Positions 3,818 through 56,447 of a DNA stretch of 64,000 nt are shown one piece after another. Below the pieces are notes generated by a model. The model was not told the origin of the DNA. It saw only the letters and a program-made list of their open reading frames with translations, and ran no database searches. Source of the stretch: Planktothricoides raciborskii GIHE-MW2. GTDB taxonomy: Bacteria > Cyanobacteriota > Cyanobacteriia > Cyanobacteriales > Laspinemataceae. A program made the translations under genes and the position numbers. Position 1 is the first letter of the stretch, and every line of letters begins with the position of its first letter. The DNA lies in assembly GCF_040564635.1 (NCBI RefSeq), contig NZ_CP159837.1, positions 2,777,001 to 2,841,000 of the forward strand, written 5' to 3'.

Positions 3818-4617
3818 GGCGTTGCACACTGGTGGTATGCTATAGAGACCGGGTTGGCAATGGCTCTCTAGAGTAAGTCAATGGAATAGGTACATTTTTA
3901 TGCCTTAAATAATAAATAACTAATCTGACTGAGAGTTGCAACATTAAGAGAGATTTAGAATCTTCTTAGAGTTTTTCTATGTAACCGAGCCAAGTAATGT
4001 CTTAGTCTTGTATTTTCCCCTTCCACACGAGTCATGTATGTTTTACTAATAATATGATCGGCCTCGTCAATAAATTGGGGATAAACAACATAACCATCTG
4101 TCACATAAAAAAATGATTCCCATCCTTTAAGAATTTTCCATAATGGTTTAAATGTTGCCGCCGAACGATCTCCTATTACATAAGCTAAAATTCCGGCTAC
4201 CCCTTTGTTGACGGCAGTCCACAGCCAGATTTTATTTTTTTTTACCTATATAAGTCTGTAATTCATCTATTTGAGTGACTGAGGGAATTTCCTGATAATC
4301 TGGTTGCTCTGGCAAGCTTAATGCGGCTGCTTTTATCCAATTAATAACTGTGTTATGACAAACACCAGTTAATCGTTCTATGCGACGAAGACCATTACCT
4401 TCAACATAAAGATGAAGGCAATGTTCCTTGACATGATCTGGATAGCCTTTAACAGAATAGCTATCAATAAATTGACGACCACAATCTTTACAATAATGAT
4501 TTTGTTTTTCTCTTTTATGGCCGTTTTTCTTAATGTTTTGAGATTGGCATACAGGACAAATCATCGCTATGTTTTATTTTAATGTTCATCCTTAGCATAC
4601 CACGAATGGGCAACGCC
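3818..4617 (-). mobile_element. IS1-like insertion sequence, copy A (about 800 bp)
   Basis: Bounded by imperfect inverted ends of about 25 bp: GGCGTTGCACACTGGTGGTA at the left, and its near reverse complement ending at 4617. The transposase lies on the minus strand. Copy B (5015-5808) is a close relative in the same orientation. Size, ends and the split zinc-finger/DDE reading frames fit the IS1 family. The 8-bp AGAAGAAT at 3810-3817 is the left-flank candidate target duplication. Confidence 0.85.
3840..4564 (-). pseudogene. IS1-family transposase (InsA/InsB-type) needing frameshift, copy A
   Basis: The first frame (4564-4232, 110 aa) has the zinc-finger CPVCQSQNIKKNGHKREKQ...CKDCGRQF and a helix-turn-helix (GVCHNTVINWIKAA), ending ...TYIGKKK. 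The catalytic DDE part continues in another frame down to 3840. The frame change is at a run of nine A on the coding strand (4231-4245 region); copy B has eight A there and reads straight through. IS1 elements normally use programmed -1 slippage at an A run, so this copy may still be functional rather than dead. That cannot be decided from sequence alone. Confidence 0.7.
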
Positions 4618-10193: not shown

Positions 10194-10312
10194 ATGTCCG
10201 TAGCGCTCACAGCCTATAACCCCGAAACCGTTGTGGATCCGGACTGGTAACCCCCCATGCCGCCGACGGACTAGATTTTTGATGATGGAGAATCCTTGGA
10301 GAGTAATCAATC
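10194..10312 (+). pseudogene. Uma2-family nuclease, 5' remnant
   Basis: Begins MSVALTAYNPETVVDPDW, matching the start of the intact Uma2 gene at 33130-32330 (MSVELTAYNPETVVEPDW). It hits in-frame stops where the intact gene has Glu and Leu, then runs FDDGESLESNQ and joins the mntA gene. The upstream region (10100-10190) is also homologous to that of the intact gene. Everything downstream of codon 40 has been deleted. Confidence 0.8.
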
Positions 10313-10603
10313 ATGCAGCGGGATGAGGTATTGCGAATTTTGATACAACACCAGCAGGTATTAAAAGAGTTTGGCGTAAAATCGCTGGCGATATTTGGCT
10401 CTGTCGCTAGGGATGAAGCCAGACCAGACAGTGATGTGGATATTTTAGTAGAATTTGACGGGCTGGTGACATTCGATCGTTATATGGATGTCAAATTTTA
10501 TTTAGAAGATCGTCTAGGGACGCGGGTTGATTTGGTGAGTAGATTAATGCTGAAACCCCTGATTCTTTCTACAGTAGAACAGGAGGCAATTGATGTCGCG
10601 TAG
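10313..10603 (+). CDS. mntA: MntA-type nucleotidyltransferase antitoxin
   Basis: 96 aa, minimal nucleotidyltransferase with the [20 protein letters not shown] signature (Gly-Ser followed by Asp-x-Asp) at residues 29-48. In MntA/HepT systems this protein AMPylates (or di/tri-adenylylates) a tyrosine of the HEPN RNase toxin HepT to silence it. The frame overlaps the start of the hepT remnant by 11 bp, the usual arrangement. The partner toxin here has a nonsense mutation. Paralogues are at 28626-28916 and 31831-32121. Confidence 0.85.
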   Translation: MQRDEVLRILIQHQQVLKEFGVKSLAIFGSVARDEARPDSDVDILVEFDGLVTFDRYMDVKFYLEDRLGTRVDLVSRLMLKPLILSTVEQEAIDVA

Positions 10604-10943
10604 TATTCGGCTGTATTTAGAAGATATTCTCACTTCTTGCGTTAAAGTTAGGCGATACACCCAAGGAATGAATTTTGAAGACTTCCAAGCTGATGATCGT
10701 ACTTATGATGCGGTTGTACGGAATTTACAGATTATCGGAGAAGCGGTTAAAAATATTCCTCAATAAATGCGATCGCAATATCCAGAAGTTGCATGGCGCA
10801 AAATTGCAGGATTGCGCGATATTTTGGCTCACGCTTACTTTAGCTTAGAAGATGAAACCCTCTGGGATATTGTGGAAACTAAAACAACGCCTTTGCTGGA
10901 AGTGGTGCAGCAAATTATAGAGGTAGAGTTTGAGGATAAATAA
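10593..10943 (+). pseudogene. HepT-type HEPN RNase toxin with internal stop
   Basis: 116-codon frame like the intact copy at 31491-31841, but codon 58 is TAA (10764-10766) where the intact gene has GAA (NIPQ*MRSQYP versus [11 protein letters not shown]). The HEPN catalytic RxxxxH motif (RDILAHAYF) lies after the stop, so any product would be a truncated non-toxic fragment. The remaining sequence is otherwise in frame to 10943, which points to a recent loss or to selection against the toxin. Confidence 0.88.
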
Positions 10944-11920: not shown

Positions 11921-12793
11921 CTATTTTAAGTAATAATTAGGTAAGACATCATTAATAGAATTAGAAGGAATAAGAGATGTAGTATTCTCCTCTTCAGGAA
12001 TTTGCCGTTTGCTGCTAATAATTCCTCGACCTCCCCATTCAATGCTGATTCCTAATCTGGTATCTCCACCCCGCATACTCAGAGTGGTGCGTAGTCCAAT
12101 ATCCTGATTTCCTCGATCGTCCAAATTGTAGCCAGTACGGAAGGACAAAGAAGTGGCAGGCAAATTAGTTTCACCGATGGGAATGCTGTAGCTGGCATAC
12201 CCACTGAAACTAACTCTATCATTGGCGACAAACCCGGATCCGATGCCAAAATTTAAGCTATGGTTATCAGACTCTAACGATTGAGAATATCCTAAAGAAG
12301 CTAAGATAATTACAGGATCTCTGATTAAACTAGCTTGACTTTGAACGGTCATTGTCCAAGGGTATGCAACACCGACGGAAAAACGAGGATCTATAGTAGA
12401 GCCAGGAGAAGGACGGTATTCTAGAGATAAATCACTGGTAATGTCCGTGTTAGTTTCTGTTCTCGTTTCAGTGCGATCGCCAAAATCTCTTTTTTCCTTA
12501 GAAATGAACCAACTAGGGGTAACGTTGGCGGAAATACTTACATAGGGGCTAAAACTGTAGCTTCCAGATCCCGAAAAGTTAATCAATTGATTAAAGGTTT
12601 CAAAATTAAACGGATTCCCCTCTGGATCAAAATCAAATCCTTCTCTTCCATCAGGGATATAATTGATGCTGAAAGTATAGATGTAGCCTCCCGTTTCTTC
12701 TTCTGGTAGTCGCAATGGGTCAATGGGAACTTGAGCAACTGCGGGCTGAGAGATTAACAAAGCGATCGGCAAAATCAACAGTCCCTTGTTCAT
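11921..12793 (-). CDS. predicted outer-membrane beta-barrel protein of the C39-protease operon
   Basis: 290 aa with a Sec signal peptide (MNKGLLILPIALLISQPAVA, cleavage after residue 20). The rest alternates polar and hydrophobic residues in strand-like segments ending in aromatic residues (YIYTFSINYIP, SGSYSFSPYVSISANVTPSW, SLNFGIGSGFVANDRVSFSG, LGISIEWGGRG), as expected for a transmembrane beta-barrel. I do not recognise a named family. The start codon overlaps the stop of the C39-type protease gene (ATGA), so the two are translationally coupled. By analogy with Fap-type amyloid loci (C39 protease FapD plus barrel FapF), it could be the outer-membrane exit for the small protein encoded at 13574-13972. 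That role is inferred. Confidence 0.75.
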   Translation of the reverse strand: MNKGLLILPIALLISQPAVAQVPIDPLRLPEEETGGYIYTFSINYIPDGREGFDFDPEGNPFNFETFNQLINFSGSGSYSFSPYVSISANVTPSWFISKEKRDFGDRTETRTETNTDITSDLSLEYRPSPGSTIDPRFSVGVAYPWTMTVQSQASLIRDPVIILASLGYSQSLESDNHSLNFGIGSGFVANDRVSFSGYASYSIPIGETNLPATSLSFRTGYNLDDRGNQDIGLRTTLSMRGGDTRLGISIEWGGRGIISSKRQIPEEENTTSLIPSNSINDVLPNYYLK

Positions 12794-13431
12794 AATTTCC
12801 TTCTCAGCGAGTTGAGTGTTGTTAAACGGGACTCTGCCCAGCTTAGAGTTTCGCTTTGTTTTTCTTTGGCAGTAAAAATTAAGTTTTCCGGTGGAATTGG
12901 TACAAGTGTTACACCACTAAAACCTTGTTTATTGACTAAATCATCAAGGGGTTGAATGCGTCGTCCCCATGATGGATCCGCTAAAATGATCCAATCTCCT
13001 ACCATGCCGACGGCTAAAACATAGTGCATTTGAGGTTTGGTGACGTGCAGAACTACCGGCAGTCCACCGTTACCAAAATATTCGGCTAAGGATGTAAGGG
13101 TTAGTCGCATTCCCCTAGCTTGAATGTCGCGATCGCCTAAAGCCTCTATTAATGCTAAAGCGGTGATTCCTCTTTCTTCTGGACTTTTACCGCTTCCTTC
13201 CATTGCTTTTTCTGATAGTTCTAAAATTTCTGCCTCTGTAGTTGGGCGATCGTAGTAGTGAGTCAATAAGGTGGCAACAGCCGCAGCACCACAGGTGTAA
13301 TAGCTGGTCTGTCCGATTACTCCCTCATAGCGAAGAGTCCGGTAAGGTGTTATTGAATTCGCCAATGCTACTTTGTGAGATAAAATTAACAAAAACAATA
13401 TCAAGTTTACCAACAAATTTTTAAAAAACAT
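12790..13431 (-). CDS. secreted C39-like (double-glycine type) cysteine peptidase
   Basis: 213 aa. The N-terminal hydrophobic signal segment (residues 1-24, ending KVALA) puts the enzyme in the periplasm. The papain-like C39 fold is visible: oxyanion Gln41 and nucleophile Cys47 in GQTSYYTCGAAAVATLL, His136 in KPQMHYVLAVG, Asp152 in ILADPSWGRR. It has no ABC-transporter domains, unlike bacteriocin exporters, so it is a free-standing protease like FapD. It is second in a minus-strand unit after the small glycine-zipper protein gene (142 bp away across a hairpin) and overlaps the barrel gene by 4 bp. The likely substrate is the neighbouring small protein, cleaved near its MTDAELAEVEGE motif. The substrate assignment is inferred. 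Confidence 0.85.
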   Translation of the reverse strand: MFFKNLLVNLILFLLILSHKVALANSITPYRTLRYEGVIGQTSYYTCGAAAVATLLTHYYDRPTTEAEILELSEKAMEGSGKSPEERGITALALIEALGDRDIQARGMRLTLTSLAEYFGNGGLPVVLHVTKPQMHYVLAVGMVGDWIILADPSWGRRIQPLDDLVNKQGFSGVTLVPIPPENLIFTAKEKQSETLSWAESRLTTLNSLRRKL

Positions 13432-13510
13432 TACATAACTTTTTGGATTAAATTAATGTCAAAAATATATTGATAAATTATTGAATAATACTATATGTTT
13501 ATCAAAATAT

Positions 13511-13542
13511 CACCCTGCAATTTGATAAGATTTTGCAGGGTG
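13511..13542 (-). terminator. hairpin between peptide gene and protease gene (attenuator candidate)
   Basis: CACCCTGCAA...TTGCAGGGTG, 10-bp perfect stem and 12-base loop, 31 bp after the stop of the small protein gene and 80 bp before the protease start. The downstream minus-strand sequence ATATTTTGAT is only moderately U-rich, so partial termination would give more peptide than processing machinery, as in many peptide operons. Confidence 0.65.
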
Positions 13543-13573
13543 ACATTAAGCTAATTGAGCGACTTGGGAATTG

Positions 13574-13972
13574 TTACCAACCGAACGCTCTGTTTGCTCC
13601 GTATGCTGCTGCACTACCAGCTAATCCACAACCCATAAGATTGCCAGTTCCAGCGCGACAACCGCCTGCAACTGCTCCTCCTACTGTTGCGCCACGCCAA
13701 CCTTGATTCCAAGATTGTCTATTCCGCAAATTGTTGAAACCGTTGGTAGCATAACCTGCGGCAGCGCCAAATCCAGCACCTACAGCAATATGCACCCACT
13801 CGCCTTCAACTTCTGCGAGTTCAGCATCGGTCATCATTTCCCCTTCCGGTAGTACAATTTGATATTGTGTCTCCGGTTCAATTTCTGATGATAAAGAATC
13901 CGCAAAAGCAGGAGCGATCGCCATATTAGAGAATAAAATGGCCGTGCCTGTTGCCATTAATAACTTTTTCAT
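13574..13972 (-). CDS. Sec-exported small glycine-zipper protein with bacteriocin-leader-like motif
   Basis: 132 aa in three parts. Residues 1-24 are a Sec signal peptide (MKKLLMATG...APAFA). Residues 25-58 are acidic and end in MTDAELAEVEGE, which resembles double-glycine leaders (LSDAEL..V.GG) with GE in place of GG. Residues 59-132 are rich in Gly/Ala in zipper spacing (AVGAGFGAAAG, ATVGGAVAGG, GCGLAGSAAAYG) with two cysteines (C105, C115), like class II bacteriocin or membrane-active peptides. It is first in a unit with a periplasmic C39-type protease and a barrel protein. It is divergent from an HTH-NTPase gene 228 bp away. I infer a precursor peptide; antibacterial or amyloid roles are both open. 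Confidence 0.8.
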   Translation of the reverse strand: MKKLLMATGTAILFSNMAIAPAFADSLSSEIEPETQYQIVLPEGEMMTDAELAEVEGEWVHIAVGAGFGAAAGYATNGFNNLRNRQSWNQGWRGATVGGAVAGGCRAGTGNLMGCGLAGSAAAYGANRAFGW

Positions 13973-14104
13973 GGTAACAATCGTGTAATTTGGTTGGTCT
14001 TGGTTTATTCAATATAAATTCTAGTTAGATAAATCAGCCACTTAAAACCATAGAATTTGGTTGGATTTAGTACCCAATTTTTCCCAGTACCCTGAAAAAA
14101 TTTA

Positions 14105-14165
14105 GTAGGATTTGGTAGGATTTGGTTCCCGGTGATTGACAAAGTAGGATTTGGTAGGATATAGT
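14105..14165 (+). promoter_or_regulatory. NTPase promoter with tandem 10-bp operator repeats, copy 1
   Basis: GTAGGATTTG is repeated back to back at 14105-14124 and again at 14144-14159. The second pair fills the 18-bp spacer between TTGACA (14136-14141) and TATAGT (14160-14165). The -10 box lies 35 bp before the ATG at 14201. One repeat per helical turn over the promoter is a classic repressor layout. The same array precedes the NTPase genes at 25540-26940 and 54413-55843. Confidence 0.75.
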
Positions 14166-14200
14166 TCTTGCTTTAAGATTAAGTCTCTGTATTTTTACTG

Positions 14201-15640
14201 ATGAAAAATATTGAAGAAGTGTTAGAGTGGGCTGAAAAGCTGATCCTTGAGAAAACAGGCGAACCTCTCAAGCCGATAGAGGAAGCCATACTCAAGGGTG
14301 TGTGGTCAGGAAAAAAATATGCTCAAATTGCTAAAGAATATAATAATTGTCGTGTATCTCACGTTAAGAAAGAAGCCGCTAAGTTATGGGATAAGCTGCG
14401 GGATGAGTTAGGAGAAGACCTGAAGAAATATAATTTTCGTTCTAAGGTAGAAAAAAAACATCGGGTTTCTCAAGGAGCAAATTTTGGTTACTGTGTACAG
14501 ATTAATGAGGGAAGTATTCATCTTTGGGGGGAAGGTTTACATCCTGTTAAAGAATTGGAAACCCGATCGCCCTCTTCTCCTGAATCTTCCCCCGACTCTT
14601 CTCCTAACTCTTCCCCCACCCAAAATTCCTCACCCATTATTGACTTAACCGACGCCCCAGACCTCAGCGAATTTTACAACCGCACCACCGAAATAAATAC
14701 CCTCAAACAGTGGATCTTAAAAGACCAGATCCGCTTAATCACCATCTATGGATTAAGTGGCATTGGCAAAAGCTTACTAACCAGGCAACTCATCGAACAA
14801 ATCAAGCCTGAATTTGACTATATTATTTGGAAAAGTCTCACAGAAACTCCCACCCTTTCCTGCCTAAAAAACCAACTGCAACAATTTTTTGCCCAGTCAC
14901 AACAGCCCCCATTACCCACAATAATTGATTACTTTCGTAACTCGCGCTGTTTAGTCATCCTCGATGACCTGCAAAATCTGTTTCAAAGCGGGTTCCTTGC
15001 CGGTCAATACTTAACCGAACATAAAGACTATGGCCAATTTTGGCAACAAATCGCCAAAAACCATCATCAAAGTTGCGTCATTCTCCTGAGTTGGGAAAAA
15101 CCCAGAGAACTCGTCACTTTACAAGGCGAAAAACAATCCACCCGCACCTTAAACTTGAAAGGATTATCAGCGGATGCTGAAGAAATTTTGAAAGAACACG
15201 GATTAACCGATTCAGAAAAATGGCCAGAATTAATCAACCTATACCAAGGTCATCCCACCTGGTTAAATATCATCGCCTCAACGATATTAGAACTATTTGA
15301 TGGTAGCGTTTCCTTATTTTTAGCCGACCAAGAGGAGATATTTATCGGCGACTTATCCCCCATTCTCGAATCTCACTTAGACCGTTTATCGGAGTTAGAA
15401 AAAAAAGTCATATCCACGTTTTCAGAATATGAATCGGTAGATATTTCTCAAGCATCTGGATTACGGGAATTTGCCAAATCAGAATTAACCGAAGCCATGC
15501 AATCTTTAGGCAGACGGGGCTTAGTCGAAAAAGTGACCACAGGAGGGCGATCGCGCTTTCTGCTAAATCCTGTATTTAATACATCCTCAAATCATTATGA
15601 AATTTTAATAACCACCAAGACACAAAGAACACAAAGATGA
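14201..15640 (+). CDS. HTH-STAND (NB-ARC-like) NTPase, copy 1
   Basis: 479 aa. Residues 1-85 form a helical HTH-type domain (ILKGVWSGKKYAQIAKEY, VSHVKKEAAKLWDKLRDEL). Residues about 86-122 are a variable linker; 123-145 a Ser/Pro repeat linker (SPESSPDSSPNSSP); from about 155 an NB-ARC/STAND ATPase with P-loop GLSGIGKS (184-191), Walker B LVILDD (251-256) and a GHPTWLNIIA helix typical of the STAND winged-helix boundary. It ends in a winged-helix-like segment with no WD40, TPR or other sensor repeats, so it is shorter than typical STAND proteins. Convergent with psbA copy 2 (shared terminator). Paralogues at 25540-26940 and 54413-55843 are nearly identical outside the linker. Role unknown; signalling ATPase or transcription regulator. 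Confidence 0.82.
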   Translation: MKNIEEVLEWAEKLILEKTGEPLKPIEEAILKGVWSGKKYAQIAKEYNNCRVSHVKKEAAKLWDKLRDELGEDLKKYNFRSKVEKKHRVSQGANFGYCVQINEGSIHLWGEGLHPVKELETRSPSSPESSPDSSPNSSPTQNSSPIIDLTDAPDLSEFYNRTTEINTLKQWILKDQIRLITIYGLSGIGKSLLTRQLIEQIKPEFDYIIWKSLTETPTLSCLKNQLQQFFAQSQQPPLPTIIDYFRNSRCLVILDDLQNLFQSGFLAGQYLTEHKDYGQFWQQIAKNHHQSCVILLSWEKPRELVTLQGEKQSTRTLNLKGLSADAEEILKEHGLTDSEKWPELINLYQGHPTWLNIIASTILELFDGSVSLFLADQEEIFIGDLSPILESHLDRLSELEKKVISTFSEYESVDISQASGLREFAKSELTEAMQSLGRRGLVEKVTTGGRSRFLLNPVFNTSSNHYEILITTKTQRTQR

Positions 15641-15708
15641 TTCTTGATTTCCTTTGTGTTCTTCGTGTCGAAAGTGGTAAAAATAGCCCTTCACAATATT
15701 TAAACAAC

Positions 15709-15742
15709 AAAAAACGCCCCCCTTGTCAGGAGAGCGTTTTTT
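15709..15742. terminator. bidirectional terminator between NTPase copy 1 and psbA copy 2
   Basis: CAAAAAACGCC...AGAGCGTTTTTT hairpin lying between the two convergent stop codons, so it can serve both genes. Confidence 0.85.
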
Positions 15743-15763
15743 ATTTATTTAGTTAGCTAAGAA

Positions 15764-16846
15764 TTAGCCATTGATTTGAGGAGCACTCAAAGCCACAGGA
15801 GCAGCTTCACCAGCAGCCAAATCTAAGGGGAAGTTGTGAGCGTTGCGCTCGTGCATCACTTCCATACCCAAGTTAGCGCGGTTGATCACGTCAGCCCAAG
15901 TATTGATTACGCGACCTTGAGAGTCAACGATAGATTGGTTGAAGTTGAAACCGTTCAGGTTGAAGGCCATCGTGGACACACCCAGAGCGGTGAACCAGAT
16001 ACCGATAACAGGCCATGCACCCAAGAAGAAGTGCAGAGAGCGGCTGTTGTTGAAGGAAGCATATTGGAAGATTAAACGACCAAAGTAACCGTGAGCGGCA
16101 ACGATGTTGTAGGTTTCTTCTTCTTGACCGAACTTGTAACCATAGTTTTGAGATTCAACTTCGGTGGTTTCACGAACCAAAGAAGAAGTCACCAAAGAAC
16201 CGTGCATAGCGGAGAACAGAGCGCCACCGAACACACCGGCCACACCTAACATATGGAAGGGGTGCATCAGGATGTTGTGTTCAGCTTGGAATACCAACAT
16301 AAAGTTGAAGGTTCCAGAGATACCCAGAGGCATACCATCGGAGAAAGAACCTTGACCGATGGGGTAGATCAGGAACACGGCGCTGGCAGCAGCCACAGGA
16401 GCGCTGTAAGCGACGCAGATCCAAGGACGCATACCCAAGCGGTAGGATAATTCCCACTCACGACCCATGTAGCAGAAGATGCCGATCAGGAAGTGGAAAA
16501 TCACTAACTGGTATGGGCCACCATTGTACAGCCACTCATCGAGAGAAGCAGCTTCCCAAATGGGGTAGAAGTGCAGACCGATCGCATTGCTGGAAGGAAC
16601 AACGGCACCAGAGATGATGTTGTTGCCTAACAGTAAGGAACCAGCCACGGGTTCGCGGATCCCGTCGATGTCCACTGGAGGAGCAGCGACGAAAGCAATG
16701 ATGTAGCAGATGGTTGCGGTCAACAAGGTGGGGATCATCAGGACGCCGAACCAGCCCACATACAGGCGGTTGTCGGTGCTCGTGACCCAGGAGCAGAAGC
16801 GCTGCCACAAAGAGGCGCTCTCGCGTTGTTGCAGAGTAGTAGTCAT
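15764..16846 (-). CDS. psbA: photosystem II D1 protein, copy 2
   Basis: 360 aa, apparently identical in protein sequence to the other copies (Glu130 form, all cofactor ligands present, C-terminal extension after Ala344). DNA differs from copy 1 by synonymous changes. It forms, with NTPase copy 1, a tail-to-tail pair that recurs almost unchanged and inverted at 53207-55843. Promoter boxes match copies 1 and 4. Just upstream lies a truncated nitronate monooxygenase gene, suggesting the cassette boundary is near 16950. Confidence 0.98.
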
Positions 16847-16893
16847 TTGCTTTATGAGTGCTATGTAGTTTTCAATGTTCGGATGATGTTTTT

Positions 16894-16922
16894 AGATTAA
16901 CCCGATTGTTAAGCTTTGTAAA
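16894..16922 (-). promoter_or_regulatory. psbA copy 2 promoter
   Basis: Minus-strand TTTACA (16917-16922), 17-bp spacer, TAATCT (16894-16899), same 5' leader as copies 1 and 4. Confidence 0.75.
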
Positions 16923-16972
16923 GGGGTTTAATAAATATTTATTCTCATCAGTCTGATAATTTGCACTTATGA

Positions 16973-25539: not shown

Positions 25540-26940
25540 TTAATCATTGTAGTTCACATAGATGTACTGTTTAAAGACAGGATTCAGTTGAAACTGCGAT
25601 CGCCCTCCCGTGGTCACTTTTTCGACTAAGCCCCGTCTGCCTAAAGATTGCATAGCTTCGGTTAATTCTGATTTGGCAAATTCCCGTAATCCAGGTGGTT
25701 GAGAAATATCTACCGCTTCATATTCTGAAAACCTGGATATGACTTTTTTTTCTAACTCCGATAAACGGTCTAAGTGAGATTCGAGAATTGGGGATAAGTC
25801 GCCGATAAATATCTCCTCTTGGTCGGCTAAAAATAAGGAAACGCTACCATCAAATAGTTCTAATATCGTTGAGGCGATGATATTTAACCAGGTGGGATGA
25901 CCTTGATAGAGGTTGATTAATTCTGGCCATTTTTCTGAATCGGTTAATCCGTGTTCTTTCAAAATTTCTTCAGCATCCGCTGATAATCCTTTCAAGTTTA
26001 AGGTGCGGGTGGATTGTTTTTCGCCTTGTAAAGTGGCGATTTCTCTGGGTTTTTCCCAACTGAGGAGAATCACGGAACTTTGATGATGGTTTTTGGCGAT
26101 TTGTTGCCAGAATTGGCCATATTCTTTATGTTCGGTTAAGTATTGACCGGCAAGGAACCCGCTTTGAAAAAGATTTTGCAGGTCATCGAGGATGACTAAA
26201 CAGCGCGAGTTACGAAAGTAATCAATTATTGTGGGTAATGGGGGATTTTGTGACTGGGAAAAAAATTGTTGCAGTTGGTTTTTTAGGGAGGAAAGGTTGG
26301 GAGTTTCTGTGAGACTTTTCCAAATAATATAGTCAAATTCAGGCTTGATTTGTTCGATGAGTTGCCTGGTTAGTACGCTTTTGCCAATGCCACTGAGTCC
26401 ATAGATGGTAATTAAGCGGATCTGGTCTTGTAAGATCCACTGTTTGAGGGTATTTAGTTCGGTGGTGCGGTTGTAAAAGTCCGTGAGGTCTGGTGCGTCG
26501 GTTAGGTCGATAATGGGTGAAGGATTTTGGGTGGGGGAAGAGTGAGGAGAAGAGTGAGGGGAAGAGTCAGGGGAAGAAGGCGATCGGGGTTGTACATCTT
26601 TAATAGTTTGTATTGATTGGTTACAAATAACATTATCAATTTGTAAGAAAGATTCATGTAAATGAGAAATCTTAGAAACCCGATGTTTTTTCTCTACCTT
26701 GGAACGAAAGTTATATTTATTCAGGTCTTTCCCTAATTCTTCCCGCAACTTATCCCATAACTTAGCGGCTTCTTTTTTAACGTGAGATTCACTGCACTTA
26801 TACTCTGTAGCAATTTGAGGATATTTTTTACCTGACCACACCCCCGTCAGTATAGCCTCCTCTATAGATGTCAGATTTTCTCCAGTTTTATCAAGTATCA
26901 ACCGATCCGCCCATTGTAATATATCTTCAACATTCTTCAT
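25540..26940 (-). CDS. HTH-STAND (NB-ARC-like) NTPase, copy 2
   Basis: 466 aa from the ATG at 26940. A longer frame to 27012 exists, but its first 24 codons overlap the promoter and operator repeats, and the paralogues start at the equivalent MKN. Architecture as copy 1: HTH domain (ILTGVWSGKKYPQIATEY), variable linker (KISHLHESFLQIDN), Ser/Pro linker, P-loop GLSGIGKS, Walker B LVILDD. The C-terminus differs (NPVFKQYIYVNYND). Convergent with psbA copy 3 across hicAB; divergent from the 27193-28518 gene pair. Confidence 0.82.
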   Translation of the reverse strand: MKNVEDILQWADRLILDKTGENLTSIEEAILTGVWSGKKYPQIATEYKCSESHVKKEAAKLWDKLREELGKDLNKYNFRSKVEKKHRVSKISHLHESFLQIDNVICNQSIQTIKDVQPRSPSSPDSSPHSSPHSSPTQNPSPIIDLTDAPDLTDFYNRTTELNTLKQWILQDQIRLITIYGLSGIGKSVLTRQLIEQIKPEFDYIIWKSLTETPNLSSLKNQLQQFFSQSQNPPLPTIIDYFRNSRCLVILDDLQNLFQSGFLAGQYLTEHKEYGQFWQQIAKNHHQSSVILLSWEKPREIATLQGEKQSTRTLNLKGLSADAEEILKEHGLTDSEKWPELINLYQGHPTWLNIIASTILELFDGSVSLFLADQEEIFIGDLSPILESHLDRLSELEKKVISRFSEYEAVDISQPPGLREFAKSELTEAMQSLGRRGLVEKVTTGGRSQFQLNPVFKQYIYVNYND

Positions 26941-26978
26941 ATTTGGATACAAATAGAGATATTTTTTAATTTTTTTCA

Positions 26979-27030
26979 AAAATATCCTACCGAATCCTAC
27001 TTTGTCAACCAAATCCTACCAAATCCTACT
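26979..27030 (-). promoter_or_regulatory. NTPase promoter with tandem 10-bp operator repeats, copy 2
   Basis: Minus strand: GTAGGATTTG twice (27011-27030), TTGACA (27003-27008), then GTAGGATTCGGTAGGA filling the 18-bp spacer, and TATTTT (26979-26984). Same layout as 14105-14165 and 55879-55935. Confidence 0.72.
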
Positions 27031-27192
27031 AAATTCCGTCAGGATAATTAGACAAAGTGTGTACCAAATGTACTGTTTTAGGCTTGTCGCATATAAATGT
27101 TACAGGATAAAATTAGGGAAACGGCCAGTAAAACCTTTAGGACAATTCTGGCATCTCAAAAATTATTATTTACTCCAATAAAGGAGGATTGA

Positions 27193-27642
27193 ATGTCTAA
27201 TAAAAATATTACTGTAATTGATTCAAAGAAAGACAACTGTCCACTTTCTCCTGGAGAGTCTTATGAAAAATATGTTTATTTAGAAAAAGGAAGTTACCGA
27301 ACATACGTATGCCCTTATGAATATAAGGGAATTAAAATCAGTGGAAGCATAACAGCAAATCTTCTATATATGGAGATAATGGCAGACCTTCAGTTAGGTT
27401 TAGAAGGTCGTAAGAGGTTCGCAGACACAATAAACAAAGAGGGTTTTCTAGATCTAGAGCTATTTTATGAATCCGGTAAGCGTTTCGCATCTAATACAGA
27501 GGATTTTGAAATTACAGCGGGATTGATACATTTTTCATCTGGTAGCCCCGTAAATTTCAAGTTCAAAGTCTCAAGGATTGGCGGTAATTACGGAAAAATA
27601 GATTTTATTGTCATGTTACAGTGTCTCGAGGATTGGCGGTAA
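27193..27642 (+). CDS. hypothetical protein divergent from NTPase copy 2
   Basis: 149 aa, ATG preceded by a strong AAAGGAGG ribosome-binding site. No recognised domain: central strand-rich part (SYEKYVYLEKGSYRTYVCPY, IKISGSITANLLYMEIMADL) without signal peptide or membrane segment. A 55-bp direct duplication (27571-27680) alters the end. Without it the frame would read ...VMLRCLRKK and stop at a TGA overlapping the next gene's ATG (27691). The present C-terminus CLEDWR is thus probably secondary. It sits at the position held by a glycine-zipper protein in the first cassette and a DUF697-like protein in the third. Confidence 0.6.
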   Translation: MSNKNITVIDSKKDNCPLSPGESYEKYVYLEKGSYRTYVCPYEYKGIKISGSITANLLYMEIMADLQLGLEGRKRFADTINKEGFLDLELFYESGKRFASNTEDFEITAGLIHFSSGSPVNFKFKVSRIGGNYGKIDFIVMLQCLEDWR

Positions 27643-27680
27643 TTCCAGAAAAATAGATTTTATTGTCATGTTACGGTGCC
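27571..27680 (+). repeat. 55-bp tandem duplication at the gene junction
   Basis: Unit 1 27571-27625 and unit 2 27626-27680 differ at only a few positions. 55 is not a multiple of 3, so the duplication changes the reading frame of the 27193 gene and separates it from the following MORN gene. Confidence 0.9.
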
Positions 27681-27690
27681 TGAGAAAAAA

Positions 27691-28518
27691 ATGAAACCTG
27701 AAGATATCGAAGAAATAGAACGCTTAATTAGACTCGGATATTACGAAGGTGTAATATTTCCATCTGGTCTAATCTATCAAGGGGGGCTTTATCGGGGACT
27801 TCCTCATGGAAAAGGAACTATTATATTGCCAAATGGAAATACATACTCTTATGAGTTTCGTGAAGGAAAGTTAATTGATGGGCGGTCAATACTATTTTAT
27901 CCAGACGGTTCTTTTTATGAAGGAGAAGTTTCTAGCAGTGGGCAACCTTACGGCAGGGGAATCATCAGAAACTTAGACGGATCTATTTACTATCAAGGAA
28001 ACTGGTGGTATCATGGATACGATCCTAAAATAGTCTGGGTATGTGAACCTTTGTTATGGTATGAAAACGGAGAGGTATTTTCAATAAGATGGGAAACGGA
28101 TATTGGACCATCAATAAATAAGCTTGTTCCGGCTGTTTGTCTTCAAATGCCTGAATCATGGGATAAAGATAAATATAAATTGTGTTCAGTTCAGATCATG
28201 TTACCCCATCTACAGATTTTAGGTTGTCCAAATATCAAGAATAATTTTACTATACATCGGTGGAACCCTACTCCTGAACAAGCGGTCGAACGGGTTGGAT
28301 TTCGGGATTTACAGGATTACTATGAGTGGGTTAACGATCCTGCTGAGAAAATTTTGCCTGATAAAGTTGTGAAGATAATTGAAAAATCAGTAAAAACCGC
28401 AAAAAAAGTAATCCCAAAAGTAATTCCAATTGTACTGTATTTTAACTTCCTGCCTCCGCAATATCAGAAAACATTGGAATTTTTACAACTTCTCTTTCCA
28501 TTTATGGAAAGAGAATAA
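27691..28518 (+). CDS. MORN-repeat protein
   Basis: 275 aa from ATG 27691 (an in-frame GTG at 27676 is the alternative). MORN-type repeats occupy about residues 20-110 (YQGGLYRGLPHGKGTIILPN, SFYEGEVSSSGQPYGRG, DGSIYYQGNW), then an unrecognised domain (VCLQMPESWDKDKYKLCSVQ) and a Lys-rich plus hydrophobic C-terminus (VIPKVIPIVLYFNFLPP). MORN repeats often mediate lipid or protein contacts. It was probably once translationally coupled to the preceding gene (see the 55-bp duplication). Role unknown; the neighbourhood is toxin-antitoxin rich. Confidence 0.7.
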   Translation: MKPEDIEEIERLIRLGYYEGVIFPSGLIYQGGLYRGLPHGKGTIILPNGNTYSYEFREGKLIDGRSILFYPDGSFYEGEVSSSGQPYGRGIIRNLDGSIYYQGNWWYHGYDPKIVWVCEPLLWYENGEVFSIRWETDIGPSINKLVPAVCLQMPESWDKDKYKLCSVQIMLPHLQILGCPNIKNNFTIHRWNPTPEQAVERVGFRDLQDYYEWVNDPAEKILPDKVVKIIEKSVKTAKKVIPKVIPIVLYFNFLPPQYQKTLEFLQLLFPFMERE

Positions 28519-28570: not shown

Positions 28571-28636
28571 TCAGCGGCTCACTGTGGAGCAAGAAGTCAG
28601 GATATCTTCTAGGTATAGTCGAATGCTACGAGACAT
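28571..28636 (-). pseudogene. HepT toxin remnant (21 codons)
   Basis: Starts [16 protein letters not shown] exactly like intact HepT (31841), overlapping the upstream mntA by 11 bp in the usual way, then diverges to STVSR and stops. The HEPN catalytic part is gone, leaving the mntA at 28626-28916 without a toxin. Confidence 0.85.
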
Positions 28637-28916
28637 AGATAGCCTCCCGTTGCACCTGGGGGCGAATTAGGGGTTTAAGCATTAGTCCACTCACCAAATC
28701 TACCCGCGTCCCTAGACGATCTTCTAGATAAAATTTGACATCCATATAAAGGTCAAATGTCACCGGCCTGTCAAATTCTACTAAAATATCCACATCACTA
28801 TCTGGTGTGGCTTCATCCCTAGCGACAGAGCCAAATATCGCCAGGGACTTTACGCCAAAATCTTTTACTACCTGCTGGTTTTGTCCCAGAATCCGCAATA
28901 CTTCTTCCCGCTGCAT
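28626..28916 (-). CDS. mntA: MntA-type nucleotidyltransferase antitoxin (orphan)
   Basis: 96 aa with [20 protein letters not shown]. Nearly identical to the copy at 31831-32121 except at the C-terminus (IRPQVQREAIYVS). The upstream 150 bp, including the palindromic repeat, are also the same as at 32122-32275, so the two loci are direct duplicates. Its HepT partner is reduced to a 21-codon stub, so it could act on the intact HepT elsewhere or be decaying. Confidence 0.85.
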   Translation of the reverse strand: MQREEVLRILGQNQQVVKDFGVKSLAIFGSVARDEATPDSDVDILVEFDRPVTFDLYMDVKFYLEDRLGTRVDLVSGLMLKPLIRPQVQREAIYVS

Positions 28917-29036
28917 AATTGACGACTCTTTCCAGACGATTTGACAATTCTTTTAGTCTAATTATATTCATTATCGCTGTTATATAGTAGCGCCTTGATT
29001 TCTCCGATGACCGCGATCGCACCTATAATCTCCTAT

Positions 29037-29069
29037 AGAAACCCGGTTTCTTCAAGAAACCGGGTTTCT
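29037..29069. repeat. 33-bp palindromic repeat
   Basis: AGAAACCCGGTTTCTT and its exact reverse complement separated by one C. An identical copy is at 32242-32274 in the duplicated mntA upstream region. Confidence 0.85.
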
Positions 29070-31490: not shown

Positions 31491-31841
31491 TTATTCATCC
31501 CCAAACTCTGTCTCTATAATTCGCTGCACCACTGCCAGCAATGGGGTTATTTTAGTTTCCAAAATATCCCAGAGGGTTTCGTCTTCTAAGCTAAAGTAAG
31601 CGTGAGCTAAAATATCGCGCAAGCCAGCAATTTTGCGCCACTCACCTTCTGGATATCTCGATCGCATTTCTTGAGGAATATTTTTAACCGCTTCTCCGAT
31701 AATCTGCAAATTCCTTACAACGGCATCATAAGTACGATCTTCAGTTTGGAAATCTTCAAAAGTCATTCCTTGAGTGTATCGTTTGACTTTGGTACAAGAA
31801 GTGAGTATATCTTCCAAATACAGACGAATACTACGCGACAT
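31491..31841 (-). CDS. hepT: HepT-type HEPN RNase toxin
   Basis: 116 aa, intact. HEPN RNase motif RDILAHAYF at about residues 75-83 (RxxxxH plus aromatic, with the Tyr that MntA-type partners adenylylate). The frame overlaps mntA by 11 bp, giving antitoxin-toxin order in transcription. This is the only full-length HepT among three related loci in the window. Confidence 0.88.
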
Positions 31842-32121
31842 AAATTGCCTCCTGTTCTACCGTAGAACGAATCAGAGGTTTAAGCATTAGGTTACTCACC
31901 AAATCTACCCGCGTCCCTAGATTATCTTCTAGATAAAATTTAACATCCATATAAAGGTCAAATGTCACCGGCCTGTCAAATTCTACTAAAATATCCACAT
32001 CACTATCTGGTGTGGCTTCATCCCTAGCGACAGAGCCAAATATCGCCAGGGACTTTACGCCAAAATCTTTTAATACCTGCTGGTTTTGTCCCAGAATCCG
32101 CAATACTTCTTCCCGCTGCAT
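31831..32121 (-). CDS. mntA: MntA-type nucleotidyltransferase antitoxin
   Basis: 96 aa with [20 protein letters not shown] and [15 protein letters not shown]. The predicted AMPylating antitoxin of the overlapping HepT. Direct-duplicate relationship with 28626-28916. Confidence 0.88.
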
Positions 32122-32241
32122 AATTAACGACTCTTTACAGACGATTTGACAATGATTTTAGTCTAATTATCTTCATTATCGCTGTTATATAGTAGCGCCT
32201 TGATTTCTCCGATGACCGCGATCGCACCTATAATCTCCTAT

Positions 32242-32274
32242 AGAAACCCGGTTTCTTCAAGAAACCGGGTTTCT
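32242..32274. repeat. 33-bp palindromic repeat
   Basis: Identical to 29037-29069 and in the same position upstream of mntA; part of the direct duplication. Confidence 0.85.
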
Positions 32275-52965: not shown

Positions 52966-53130
52966 AAACTGCCGTCCGGGTTTAAGTCGGTGATTACCAT
53001 ATCAGAAGTGAGGGCTATTTCAAATCCAGACCAACAGGAAATCAATTGCCTCCCTAATTGCCTCTTGCCGCCCTTAACACTGATAATCCACGCTTATGAC
53101 ACTGATTAAAATAAATATTTGTTAAACCCC

Positions 53131-53159
53131 TTTACAAAGCTTAACAATCCGGTTAATCT
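53131..53159 (+). promoter_or_regulatory. psbA copy 4 promoter
   Basis: TTTACA (53131-53136), 17-bp spacer, TAATCT (53154-53159); identical boxes to copies 1 and 2. Confidence 0.75.
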
Positions 53160-53206
53160 ATAAACATCATCCGAACATTGAAAACTACATAGCACTCATA
53201 AAGCAA

Positions 53207-54289
53207 ATGACTACTACTCTCCAACAACGCGAAAGCGCTTCTCTGTGGCAGCGCTTCTGCTCCTGGGTCACAAGCACCGACAACCGCCTGTATGTAGGCT
53301 GGTTCGGCGTCCTGATGATCCCCACCCTTTTGACCGCAACCATCTGCTACATCATTGCTTTCGTCGCTGCTCCTCCAGTGGACATTGACGGGATCCGCGA
53401 ACCCGTGGCTGGTTCCTTACTGTTAGGCAACAACATCATCTCTGGTGCCGTTGTTCCTTCCAGCAATGCGATCGGTCTGCACTTCTACCCCATTTGGGAA
53501 GCTGCTTCTCTCGATGAGTGGCTGTACAATGGTGGCCCATACCAGTTAGTGATTTTCCACTTCCTGATCGGCATCTTCTGCTACATGGGTCGTGAGTGGG
53601 AATTATCCTACCGCTTGGGTATGCGTCCTTGGATCTGCGTCGCTTACAGCGCTCCTGTGGCTGCTGCCAGCGCCGTGTTCCTGATCTACCCCATCGGTCA
53701 AGGTTCTTTCTCCGATGGTATGCCTCTGGGTATCTCTGGAACCTTCAACTTTATGTTGGTATTCCAAGCTGAACACAACATCCTGATGCACCCCTTCCAT
53801 ATGTTAGGTGTGGCCGGTGTGTTCGGTGGCGCTCTGTTCTCCGCTATGCACGGTTCTTTGGTGACTTCTTCCTTGGTTCGTGAAACCACCGAAGTTGAAT
53901 CTCAAAACTATGGTTACAAGTTCGGTCAAGAAGAAGAAACCTACAACATCGTTGCCGCTCACGGTTACTTTGGTCGTTTGATCTTCCAATACGCTTCCTT
54001 CAACAACAGCCGCTCTCTGCACTTCTTCTTGGGTGCATGGCCTGTTATCGGTATCTGGTTCACCGCTCTGGGTGTGTCCACGATGGCCTTCAACCTGAAC
54101 GGTTTCAACTTCAACCAATCCATTGTTGATTCTCAAGGTCGCGTCATCAATACCTGGGCTGATGTGATCAACCGCGCTAACTTGGGTATGGAAGTGATGC
54201 ACGAGCGCAACGCTCACAACTTCCCCTTAGATTTGGCTGCTGGTGAAGCTGCTCCTGTGGCTTTGAGTGCTCCTCAAATCAATGGCTAA
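53207..54289 (+). CDS. psbA: photosystem II D1 protein, copy 4
   Basis: 360 aa, apparently the same protein as copies 1-3 (Glu130, all ligands). Tail-to-tail with NTPase copy 3; the psbA-terminator-NTPase block is an inverted near-copy of 14.1-16.9 kb. Relative to psbA copy 3 (23729) it is in direct orientation 29.5 kb away. Confidence 0.98.
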
Positions 54290-54310
54290 TTCTTAGCTAA
54301 CTAAATAAAT

Positions 54311-54344
54311 AAAAAACGCTCTCCTGAAAAGGGGGGCGTTTTTT
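54311..54344. terminator. bidirectional terminator between psbA copy 4 and NTPase copy 3
   Basis: AAAAAACGCTCTCC...GGGGGGCGTTTTTT hairpin between convergent stops; same as at 15709-15742. Confidence 0.85.
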
Positions 54345-54412
54345 GTTGTTTAAATATTGTGAAGGGCTATTTTTACCACTTTCGACACGAAGAACACAAA
54401 GGAAATCAAGAA

Positions 54413-55843
54413 TCATCTTTGTGTTCTTTGTGTCTTGGTGGTTATTAAAATTTCATAATGATTTGAGGATGTATTAAATACAGGATTTAGCAGAAAGCGC
54501 GATCGCCCTCCTGTGGTCACTTTTTCGACTAAGCCCCGTCTGCCTAAAGATTGCATGGCTTCGGTTAATTCTGATTTGGCAAATTCCCGTAATCCAGATG
54601 CTTGAGAAATATCTACCGATTCATATTCTGAAAACGTGGATATGACTTTTTTTTCTAACTCCGATAAACGGTCTAAGTGAGATTCGAGAATGGGGGATAA
54701 GTCGCCGATAAATATCTCCTCTTGGTCGGCTAAAAATAAGGAAACGCTACCATCAAATAGTTCTAATATCGTTGAGGCGATGATATTTAACCAGGTGGGA
54801 TGACCTTGGTATAGGTTGATTAATTCTGGCCATTTTTCTGAGTCGGTTAATCCGTGTTCTTTCAAAATTTCCTCAGCATCCGCTGATAATCCTTTGAGGT
54901 TTAAAGTGCGGGTGGATTGTTTTTCGCCTTGTAAAGTGGCGATTTCTCTGGGTTTTTCCCAACTCAGGAGAATCACGGAACTTTGATGATGGTTTTTGGC
55001 GATTTGTTGCCAAAATTGGCCATAGTCTTTATGTTCGGTTAAGTATTGACCGGCAAGGAACCCGCTTTGAAAAAGATTTTGCAGGTCATCCAGTATGACT
55101 AAACAGCGCGAGTTACGAAAGTAATCAATTATTGTGGGTAATGGGGGATTTTGTGACTGGGCAAAAAATTGTTGTAGTTGGTTTTTTAGGCAGGAAAGGG
55201 TGGGAGTTTCTGTGAGACTTTTCCAAATAATATAGTCAAATTCAGGCTTGATTTGTTCGATGAGTTGCCTGGTTAGTAAGCTTTTGCCAATGCCACTTAA
55301 TCCATAGATGGTGATTAAGCGGATCTGGTCTTTTAAGATCCACTGTTTGAGGGTATTTATTTCGGTGGTGCGGTTGTAAAATTCGCTGAGGTCTGGAGCG
55401 TCGGTTAAGTCAATAATGGGTGAGGAATTTTGGGTGGGGGAAGAGTTAGGAGAAGAGTCGGGGGAAGATTCAGGAGAAGAGGGCGATCGATCATCTTTTA
55501 TCGTTTGTATGAATTCACCTCCAATATTCACATTATCAACTTGTACTAAACAGTGACCTGATTGAGAACATGGAGAAACCCTATTTCTTTTCTCTACCTT
55601 GGAACGAAAATTATATTTCTTCAGGTCTTCTCCTAACTCATCCCGCAGCTTATCCCATAACTTAGCGGCTTCTTTCTTAACGTGAGATACACGACAATTA
55701 TTATATTCTTTAGCAATTTGAGCATATTTTTTTCCTGACCACACACCCTTGAGTATGGCTTCCTCTATCGGCTTGAGAGGTTCGCCTGTTTTCTCAAGGA
55801 TCAGCTTTTCAGCCCACTCTAACACTTCTTCAATATTTTTCAT
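54413..55843 (-). CDS. HTH-STAND (NB-ARC-like) NTPase, copy 3
   Basis: 476 aa. HTH domain and ATPase core nearly identical to copy 1, including the C-terminus (SSNHYEILITTKTQRTQR). The linker after the HTH differs entirely (NRVSPCSQSGHCLVQVDNVN versus HRVSQGANFGYCVQINEGS). P-loop GLSGIGKS, Walker B LVILDD. Convergent with psbA copy 4; divergent from the DUF697-like gene at 56064. Confidence 0.82.
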   Translation of the reverse strand: MKNIEEVLEWAEKLILEKTGEPLKPIEEAILKGVWSGKKYAQIAKEYNNCRVSHVKKEAAKLWDKLRDELGEDLKKYNFRSKVEKRNRVSPCSQSGHCLVQVDNVNIGGEFIQTIKDDRSPSSPESSPDSSPNSSPTQNSSPIIDLTDAPDLSEFYNRTTEINTLKQWILKDQIRLITIYGLSGIGKSLLTRQLIEQIKPEFDYIIWKSLTETPTLSCLKNQLQQFFAQSQNPPLPTIIDYFRNSRCLVILDDLQNLFQSGFLAGQYLTEHKDYGQFWQQIAKNHHQSSVILLSWEKPREIATLQGEKQSTRTLNLKGLSADAEEILKEHGLTDSEKWPELINLYQGHPTWLNIIASTILELFDGSVSLFLADQEEIFIGDLSPILESHLDRLSELEKKVISTFSEYESVDISQASGLREFAKSELTEAMQSLGRRGLVEKVTTGGRSRFLLNPVFNTSSNHYEILITTKTQRTQR

Positions 55844-55878
55844 CAGTAAAAATACAGAGACTTAATCTTAAATAAATA

Positions 55879-55935
55879 ACTATATCCTACCAAATCCTAC
55901 TTTGTCAATCATTGGAAACCAAATCCTACTAAATC
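55879..55935 (-). promoter_or_regulatory. NTPase promoter with tandem 10-bp operator repeats, copy 3
   Basis: Minus strand: a degenerate upstream pair (GTAAGATTTAGTAGGATTTG, about 55920-55940), TTGACA (55903-55908), GTAGGATTTGGTAGGA in the 18-bp spacer, TATAGT (55879-55884). Same geometry as copies 1 and 2. Confidence 0.75.
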
Positions 55936-56063
55936 TTACTAATTTTTTTCAGGTTACTTGGAAAATTTGGGTACTAAATTTAGTGTATTATATTTGTAAA
56001 TTATACATATTACAAAAAAAAATTGGGGAAACGATCAAAAGCAGATTCAAGGAGCATAATTTT

Positions 56064-56447
56064 ATGATTTTGATGATCATTAATCATCTGAAACATTTTA
56101 TGCCTAGTCGCAGAGCACGTTTACATACTATTATTCATGTAGCAGCGACAGAAGCTACAGCCGTTGGGTTTGCCACTGCCCAAATTCCGGGAGACCGCTG
56201 GGTGATTGGTGCTGTTCAACTCAATATGAAAATTGAATTGGCGGCTGAGTTCGGAGAAAGTATCGATAAAGCTGCCGCTATGTCTCTAATAACTACAAAT
56301 GTATCCGCTTTTATAGGAGTTGAGACATGTAATGCTATCATCAAATATGCTCCTGGAATAGGAAATGCAGCTAATATGGTTACTGCTGCTTCTGTGACTG
56401 AAACTCTTGGTTGGGCTGTTGTTGAATATTACGAAAAAAAAAAATAA
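56064..56447 (+). CDS. DUF697-like glycine-rich membrane-associated protein
   Basis: 127 aa from ATG 56064, preceded by AAGGAG at a good distance; this favours it over the longer frame from 55902, which overlaps the NTPase operator. The helical, Ala/Gly-rich body (TEATAVGFATAQIPGDRWVI, AAEFGESIDKAAAMSLITTN, YAPGIGNAANMVTAASVTET) resembles DUF697-type domains found near small GTPases, often membrane-associated. Divergent from NTPase copy 3, in the position of the glycine-zipper peptide gene of cassette 1. Function unknown. Confidence 0.65.
   Translation: MILMIINHLKHFMPSRRARLHTIIHVAATEATAVGFATAQIPGDRWVIGAVQLNMKIELAAEFGESIDKAAAMSLITTNVSAFIGVETCNAIIKYAPGIGNAANMVTAASVTETLGWAVVEYYEKKK

What the first reader, a model, noticed from the sequence alone, without database searches (positions are those of the whole stretch)
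11921..13972. Candidate new secretion/processing system: Sec-exported glycine-zipper peptide, periplasmic C39-type protease, outer-membrane barrel
The first gene encodes a protein with a Sec signal and a second, internal leader-like motif (MTDAELAEVEGE) before a Gly/Ala zipper core with two cysteines. The second encodes a free-standing periplasmic C39-type peptidase with a full Q-C-H-D set; the third an outer-membrane barrel overlapping it by 4 bp. A hairpin after the peptide gene would set high peptide:machinery ratio. In known bacteriocins C39 cleavage occurs at the inner membrane within an ABC exporter. Here it would occur in the periplasm after Sec export, with exit through the barrel. The nearest logic is the Fap amyloid system (FapC/D/F), but the substrate looks like a class II bacteriocin. 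I regard this as the best candidate for an undescribed system in the window.
Basis: partly seen in the sequence, partly recalled or inferred. Interest (0 to 1): 0.75.

Follow-up and report, generated by a model that had tools for sequence, protein, structure and literature searches.

The report
Swappable toxin-peptide export cassette in cyanobacteria
A small operon appears to export a short toxin-like peptide in two steps, through the inner membrane and then, after clipping in the periplasm, through an outer-membrane channel, and relatives show the peptide part being swapped like a cartridge, once for a recognised toxin with its likely antidote.

Summary
The three genes are real and belong together. 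The same order (Sec-signalled small protein, signal-bearing C39 peptidase, barrel) occurs in 8 of 8 cyanobacterial loci found. The small protein is modular. Signal and leader (ending EL..[VI]EGE) follow the machinery's phylogeny, but the 61-79 aa cationic two-cysteine core does not; DNA identity collapses at the leader/core junction and returns near the C39 start. In two Deinococcus plasmids homology stops at that junction; one core is an Ntox33 toxin followed by DUF4279, a pair described elsewhere as toxin and likely immunity. The C39 clade is separate from ABC-exporter C39s. The barrel is predicted 12-stranded; its best Foldseek match is the amyloid transporter FapF. Best reading: a FapD/FapF-like export system specialised for interchangeable bacteriocin- or toxin-like cargo. 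The principle is not wholly new: Fap and the Neisseria nap island are published. Cassette exchange, toxin/immunity cargo and the STAND neighbour were not seen in my limited searches. Against: no immunity gene in the cyanobacterial gaps, no recognisable leader gene at Thermus homologues, no experiment.

The parts
13574..13972 (-). cargo precursor, 132 aa: Sec signal + C39-type leader + cationic Gly/Ala-rich core with 2 Cys
   Evidence: ORF; homologues in 7 further loci; core properties; no Pfam hit
13901..13972 (-). Sec signal peptide, residues 1-24 (ends ...APAFA), judged by eye
   Evidence: sequence; aligned
13799..13858 (-). leader IVLPEGEMMTDAELAEVEGE, residues 39-58; predicted C39 cut after the final Glu
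   Evidence: aligned in 7 rows and read in all 8 loci; motif in 1 of 173 window ORFs
13577..13798 (-). exchangeable core, residues 59-132, 2 Cys, pI 10.8
13506..13547 (-). RNA hairpin between cargo and protease genes (attenuator-like)
   Evidence: z -3.93; not called a terminator
12790..13431 (-). signal-bearing, free-standing C39 cysteine peptidase (Q41 C47 H136 D152)
11921..12793 (-). outer-membrane 12-strand barrel with FapF-like fold; lacks the C-terminal coiled-coil-like stretch found in 5 of 8 homologues
13982..14167 (+). five direct-repeat copies (TTTGGTAGGATTTGGT type, partly 10-nt period), candidate operator in the divergent promoter region
14201..15640 (+). divergent STAND/NB-ARC ATPase, neighbour in 8 of 8 loci; candidate regulator
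   Evidence: NB-ARC E 1.6e-8; a paralogue has a weak LuxR-type HTH hit, GerE E 0.0096

Best explanation
A FapD/FapF-like two-step export operon specialised for interchangeable bacteriocin- or toxin-like cargo. Proposed steps: (1) the divergent STAND/NB-ARC protein controls the operon through the direct repeats in the shared promoter (inferred). (2) Precursor, C39 and barrel each cross the inner membrane by Sec (from signal sequences by eye). (3) In the periplasm the C39 removes the leader after EL..[VI]EGE, at the canonical double-glycine position with Glu at P1 (inferred from the conserved motif, the catalytic residues and the exchange breakpoint). (4) The 61-79 residue cationic, two-cysteine core leaves through the 12-strand barrel (inferred from predicted fold and gene order). 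(5) Outside, the core acts on other cells, probably on membranes (inferred from core properties, diversification and the Ntox33/DUF4279 cargo of a Deinococcus relative). Cargo is renewed by replacing the core block between conserved leader and C39 DNA (shown as a pattern; the recombination mechanism is inferred).
Against: No immunity candidate between cargo and C39 in cyanobacteria: no closed ATG-started ORF of 25 aa or more in 6 of 8 gaps; L031 has one 25-aa antisense ORF, L032 (968-bp gap) several. Thermus homologues (3 loci) have C39 and a barrel-like gene but no recognisable leader gene; upstream is a membrane protein. P1 Glu is unusual for C39 enzymes (general knowledge). Some cores are alike within a clade too (L029/L089 51%), and exchange fits any diversifying cargo. 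The window barrel lacks the C-terminal coiled-coil-like stretch of 5 of 8 homologues; in FapF the N-terminal periplasmic part is needed for secretion. NCBIfam's FapF model does not hit the window barrel. KdgM, NanC and EstA barrels score as high as FapF in the second look, and three of five barrel models were poor. Cargo fold prediction failed (mean pLDDT 45.9). Nap peptides showed no antimicrobial activity. Nothing shows expression.
Confidence: 0.6

Rival explanations
1. A cyanobacterial functional-amyloid or matrix system: the zipper core is a Fap-like fibre or adhesive subunit exported through a FapF-like channel.
For: FapF-like barrel fold; NCBIfam C39 matches include FapD (E 5.7e-10, far below its cut-off); Gly/Ala-rich core.
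Against: Core N+Q only 0-13% and no repeats seen by eye, unlike the N/Q-rich repeats reported for FapC; cores short, cationic, two-Cys and exchangeable; a Deinococcus cargo carries Ntox33 with DUF4279 next to it; no FapA, B, C or E partners seen by eye among the listed ORFs.
Confidence: 0.13
2. A Nap-like self-lysis system: the core promotes lysis of the producer's own population.
For: Same parts list as the published nap island; no linked immunity gene in cyanobacterial gaps; STAND proteins are often tied to cell-death signalling (general knowledge).
Against: Rapid core exchange is not expected for a purely self-directed lysin; Deinococcus loci do hold a gene in the immunity position.
Confidence: 0.1
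3. A secreted signalling or kin-recognition peptide: the variable core is read by receptors of neighbours, which would explain diversity without immunity genes.
For: Diversifying core without a linked immunity ORF.
Against: No linked receptor gene recognised; the STAND protein type also sits beside two unrelated cargos in this window; Ntox33 cargo in a relative.
Confidence: 0.1
4. The small gene is not the substrate; the C39 trims the barrel or acts as a chaperone, as was considered for FapD.
For: FapD's substrate was reported as unclear; Thermus loci have C39 and a barrel-like gene without a recognisable leader gene.
Against: Catalytic Q, C, H and D invariant; leader motif conserved while the sequence after it is not; exchange breakpoint at the predicted cleavage site.
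Confidence: 0.07

Closest known systems
Fap functional-amyloid system (FapD periplasmic C39, FapF barrel), Pseudomonas
   Same: signal-bearing periplasmic C39 near an outer-membrane barrel; barrel fold best matched to FapF by Foldseek; FapD activity needed for FapC export
   Different: no amyloid-repeat subunits or FapA/B/C/E seen; C39 in a separate supported clade from three FapD-like ones; FapF sequence model not met; cargo is a short cationic exchangeable core; coiled coil, where present, is C-terminal
nap island, Neisseria (PLoS Biol 2025, PMC11798529)
   Same: C39 (NapP) + FapF homologue (NapF) + GG-motif bacteriocin-like cationic peptides; published model of periplasmic cleavage and export
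   Different: several short peptides (mature 16-36 aa), LagC-like napI, holin-like napH, own putative regulator; no cassette exchange in the passages I read; self-lysis role; different phylum
FapD/FapF gene pairs in five further phyla (JMB 2018, PMC6173800)
   Same: co-localised C39 and barrel homologues reported outside Fap-bearing bacteria
   Different: cargo not discussed in the passages I saw; its Fig. S1 was not seen, so whether these loci are among them is open
C39-ABC exported cyanobacterial bacteriocins (NHLP/N11P; PMC3140520)
   Same: EL..[IV].G leader logic and variable core (passages)
   Different: here a Sec signal precedes the leader, the C39 is free-standing and signal-bearing, and no ABC transporter is seen in the operon
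Polymorphic toxin/immunity systems (Ntox33/DUF4279)
   Same: one Deinococcus homologue carries this pair, and the toxic end differs between two loci
   Different: cyanobacterial precursors scanned (window, L028, L031, L033) match no Pfam family and have no linked immunity ORF in 6 of 8 gaps

Membership tests
Fap system | C39_FapD equivalog (NF058616, cut-off 330 bits) | tested here: not met
   window C39 38.8 bits, E 5.7e-10; separate clade in the tree
Fap system | FapF sequence family (NF058560, cut-off 700 bits) | tested here: not met
   no hit for the window barrel at E<=1; a Polymorphobacter protein hits at 1.2e-45, itself below the cut-off
Fap system | FapF-like 12-strand barrel fold | tested here: met
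   12 strands; FapF 5o65 best Foldseek hit E 2.8e-10, TM 0.56; porins and autotransporters score alike
Fap system | amyloid subunits with N/Q-rich repeats (FapB/C/E) | tested here: not met
   none seen by eye among the ORFs listed for the 8 loci; core N+Q 0-13%
Nap-type export (C39 + FapF-like barrel + leader-bearing cationic peptide) | the three parts side by side | tested here: met
   8 of 8 cyanobacterial loci; 2 of 2 Deinococcus; barrel fold tested for the window protein only
Nap-type export (C39 + FapF-like barrel + leader-bearing cationic peptide) | homology of cargo to NapA/B/C | not tested
   Neisseria sequences were not fetched
Class II bacteriocin / microcin | double-glycine-type leader EL..[IV].G with small cationic core | tested here: met
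   P1 is Glu, not Gly/Ala
Class II bacteriocin / microcin | dedicated C39-ABC exporter in the cluster | tested here: not met
   no ABC transporter seen by eye among the ORFs listed for the loci
Class II bacteriocin / microcin | linked immunity gene | tested here: inconclusive
   cyanobacteria: no closed ORF of 25 aa or more in 6 of 8 cargo-C39 gaps, other positions not tested; Deinococcus L086 and L087 do have a gene there
Class II bacteriocin / microcin | killing of sensitive strains | not testable with these tools
   needs bench work
Polymorphic toxin system | constant N-terminus with exchangeable C-terminal toxin and immunity | tested here: inconclusive
   fits in Deinococcus; in cyanobacteria exchange is shown but no toxin family or immunity gene
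STAND-class transcription regulators | NB-ARC-type NTPase with DNA-binding domain | tested here: inconclusive
   NB-ARC E 1.6e-8; HTH only a weak GerE hit in a paralogue; repeats in the shared promoter

The most novel reading that the evidence does not exclude
An NLR-like (STAND/NB-ARC) sensor fires a secreted, cartridge-loaded weapon: an intracellular ATPase controls a two-step exporter whose toxin core is exchanged by recombination at the protease cleavage site, so that any core, from bacteriocin-like zipper to Ntox33 toxin with its immunity gene, can be plugged into one leader, one protease and one channel. Two further cassettes in this window carry closely similar sensors and repeats with different cargo, so the sensor-operator unit would itself be a portable control module.
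Probability: 0.25. Interest if true: 0.85.

Novelty: new variant of a known kind. Interest (0 to 1): 0.62.

Why it matters
It ties the poorly understood periplasmic C39 peptidases to a clear substrate rule (Sec signal, then an EL..[VI].G leader, then a replaceable core), which bears on the question left open for FapD in the passages read. It extends the FapD/FapF principle from amyloid to diversifying, in one relative toxin-bearing, cargo in Cyanobacteria and Deinococcota. It offers simple tests: one protease mutant, one barrel deletion, one swapped core. If the STAND protein proves to be the switch, it would link NLR-type sensing to secreted rather than only intracellular effectors.

Tried and rejected
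Carried by phage or virus: 29 viral-contig stretches matched a peptide pattern but none encodes a relative (short-pattern scan); no match in phage records. Cores as ends of larger proteins: none on plasmids for two cores; in 388 genomes only the six source loci plus one weak fragment.

Small-gene homologue at G044 (E 9.5e-4): the motif search of its 15-kb region hit only one large frame at its edge; treated as chance.

Same-species absence: genome G419 has no C39 match at E<=1e-12, but its contig ends in the psbA repeat at window 8882, so absence is not proven. Not used as evidence.

Intrinsic terminator after the cargo gene: not called by the scan; kept as a hairpin only. In L031 and L033 the fold includes inverted repeats further downstream that may be unrelated.

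Operator as ACYAAA pairs 10 nt apart: found in 6 of 8 loci; absent in L028 and L089. The pattern was drawn from the window, so the window is not an independent case. L028 has another 10-nt repeat (CCTAC type); L089 was not run through the repeat finder. The reversed-pattern control in the own genome had 13 matches at up to 3 mismatches against 11 for the pattern, so only the 1-2 mismatch hits at the three NB-ARC loci are leaned on.

Cargo structure: mean pLDDT 45.9, pTM 0.25; not interpreted. The VIA second look ranks KdgM, EstA and NanC barrels level with FapF; Foldseek puts FapF first. Tree: long branches L009 and L088, a warning that long branches meet between L088 and the ABC group, and compositional outliers L083/L084; L003 gave no domain and L085 was left out. 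A fourth Thermus record with a partial match (H13) was not fetched.

Literature: five searches on the C39/Fap/bacteriocin question, one on DUF4279 (106), one on NB-ARC/STAND regulators (97), all in an open-licence library; 'not seen' is limited to those. Papers: passages of PMC5557850, PMC6173800, PMC3140520, PMC7159879, PMC13304343; outline with abstract, one section and passages of PMC11798529; others as search listings. The name 'vMAP-like HTH' in my notes is recalled and confirmed by no call; it is not used here.

Full report
Observation. The three genes are present as described on the minus strand: cargo 13574-13972, C39 12790-13431, barrel 11921-12793, the last two overlapping by 4 bp. 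The protease is a true C39 (PF03412 E 3.1e-13) with Q41, C47, H136 and D152 invariant in the seven-row alignment. The leader-like motif is rare: 1 of 173 ORFs of 60 aa or more in the window. The hairpin after the peptide gene is significant (z -3.93, 0 of 200 shuffles). Of the seven gaps folded, six have z of -1.82 or lower, with different stems; three of these gaps were folded only in their first 145-147 nt. Signal peptides were judged by eye.

Conservation. A scan of genome contigs with a three-row C39 alignment gave six loci. An order-wide search gave 8 of 388 genomes at E<=1e-12, the own genome included, and a phylum-wide sample 2 of 386 at E<=1e-15. The eight loci are the window, L028, L029, L030, L031, L032, L033 and L089. 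All eight have, in order, a leader-bearing Sec-type small gene, the C39 and the barrel, and all eight have a divergent NB-ARC/STAND gene next to the small gene. In L029 the NB-ARC gene runs off the contig and in L033 its ORF ends early. L032 has a 968-bp gap between cargo and C39 that holds a degenerate copy of the C39 start.

Relatives elsewhere. tblastn on plasmids found 22 records; the five best are Thermus (3) and Deinococcus (2) at 41-45% identity over 80-90% of the query. In each the C39 gene is followed at once by a barrel-like gene: PF13505 at E 3.5e-5 and 1.1e-6 in Deinococcus, resemblance by eye only in Thermus. The two Deinococcus cargos have signal plus leader (LPQVLSDEELDGVTGE, LPQALSDAELDEVKGE). 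One core is short and zipper-like and is followed by a 63-aa gene with a hydrophobic stretch; the other carries Ntox33 (E 3.7e-23) and is followed by DUF4279 (E 1.6e-16). Ntox33 with DUF4279 is described as an effector with its likely immunity protein in an Rhs system (PMC13304343, passages). Between these two loci BLAST homology stops at L086 base 3425 and L087 base 3137, the last base of the leader's final Glu codon in both, and resumes at base 3997 in both. That is two bases inside the annotated C39 start of L086, which is probably too late since tblastn extends the frame to about 3914, and 65 bases inside the C39 gene of L087. The differing block is thus the core, the gene after it and perhaps the C39 signal peptide. 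This is one pair of loci. In the divergent position L087 has an annotated histidine kinase and response regulator, L086 a response regulator and a hypothetical protein, not a STAND gene. Thermus is the exception: no leader-motif ORF fits beside C39 and barrel.

Regulator. The shared promoter region of the window has five direct-repeat copies. Pairs of ACYAAA 10 nt apart occur in 6 of 8 loci, where at most 2 of 500 shuffles reach the observed number; in all 8 loci no ACYAAA lies on the other strand. L028 and L089 lack the pairs. In the 7.2-Mb own genome the repeat pattern with 1-2 mismatches is found at three NB-ARC loci, all inside this window, and at two other places. The three NB-ARC genes are the closest paralogues by N-terminal region (78-100% identity; 50 further matches at 49% or less) and have different divergent neighbours. 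This suggests, but does not show, that the STAND protein binds the repeats.

Interpretation. The parts, their co-occurrence and the exchange breakpoint at the predicted cleavage site make the Sec, then periplasmic C39, then barrel route the most economical reading. The Ntox33/DUF4279 cargo of a relative makes an antagonistic role more likely than amyloid, with the open problem that most cyanobacterial cargo-C39 gaps have no room for an immunity gene. Self-lysis as in the nap island, or a recognition signal, remain live.

Known or new. Fap (PMC5557850, passages) and the nap island (PMC11798529, abstract, section 5 and passages) already show the principle, and PMC6173800 (passages) reports FapD/FapF pairs in five further phyla. 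Formal membership in Fap is not met. I file it as a new variant of a known kind. Within the searches listed I saw no description of cassette exchange, toxin/immunity cargo or STAND control for such a system.

Noticed in passing
window 25540-28518 and 54413-56447: Two further divergent cassettes: NB-ARC genes 88-96% identical in DNA to the one here, with the same repeat type but other cargo (149-aa unknown + MORN protein; a 127-aa hydrophobic Ala/Gly-rich protein).
   Followed up: partly
window 14065-16959 and 53094-55979: A 2.9-kb block (repeats, NB-ARC, psbA) is duplicated at 96.4% identity; four psbA copies lie in the window, three next to or near these NB-ARC genes. A same-species assembly breaks at this repeat.
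   Followed up: partly
own genome, 53 places: The N-terminal region of the NB-ARC protein has 53 matches in this one genome: a large STAND family.
   Followed up: no
L090 3634-5238, L091 3468-5277, L092 3381-3869: Fap-like loci of Polymorphobacter, Croceicoccus and Cupriavidus: small proteins beside the C39 carry leader-like motifs (VSDAELGEVAGK, YELATMRGG, LDDVRGG), candidate substrates for FapD-type enzymes (by eye).
   Followed up: partly
L088 1605-5882: Campylobacter concisus plasmid pCCON16: two signal-bearing proteins with GG-type leaders, a barrel-like protein (no Pfam hit) and a C39 peptidase together.
   Followed up: partly
L032 5003-5970: Gap between cargo and C39 holds a degenerate copy of the C39 start.
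   Followed up: partly
window 10309-10943, 28581-29069, 31491-32274: Repeated nucleotidyltransferase/HEPN-like toxin-antitoxin-type genes (names by eye; repeats); the HEPN-like frame at about 10593-10943 appears interrupted.
   Followed up: no
L083-L085: Thermus plasmids carry the C39 + barrel-like pair after an unrelated membrane-protein gene, with no leader gene seen; their substrate is unknown.
   Followed up: partly
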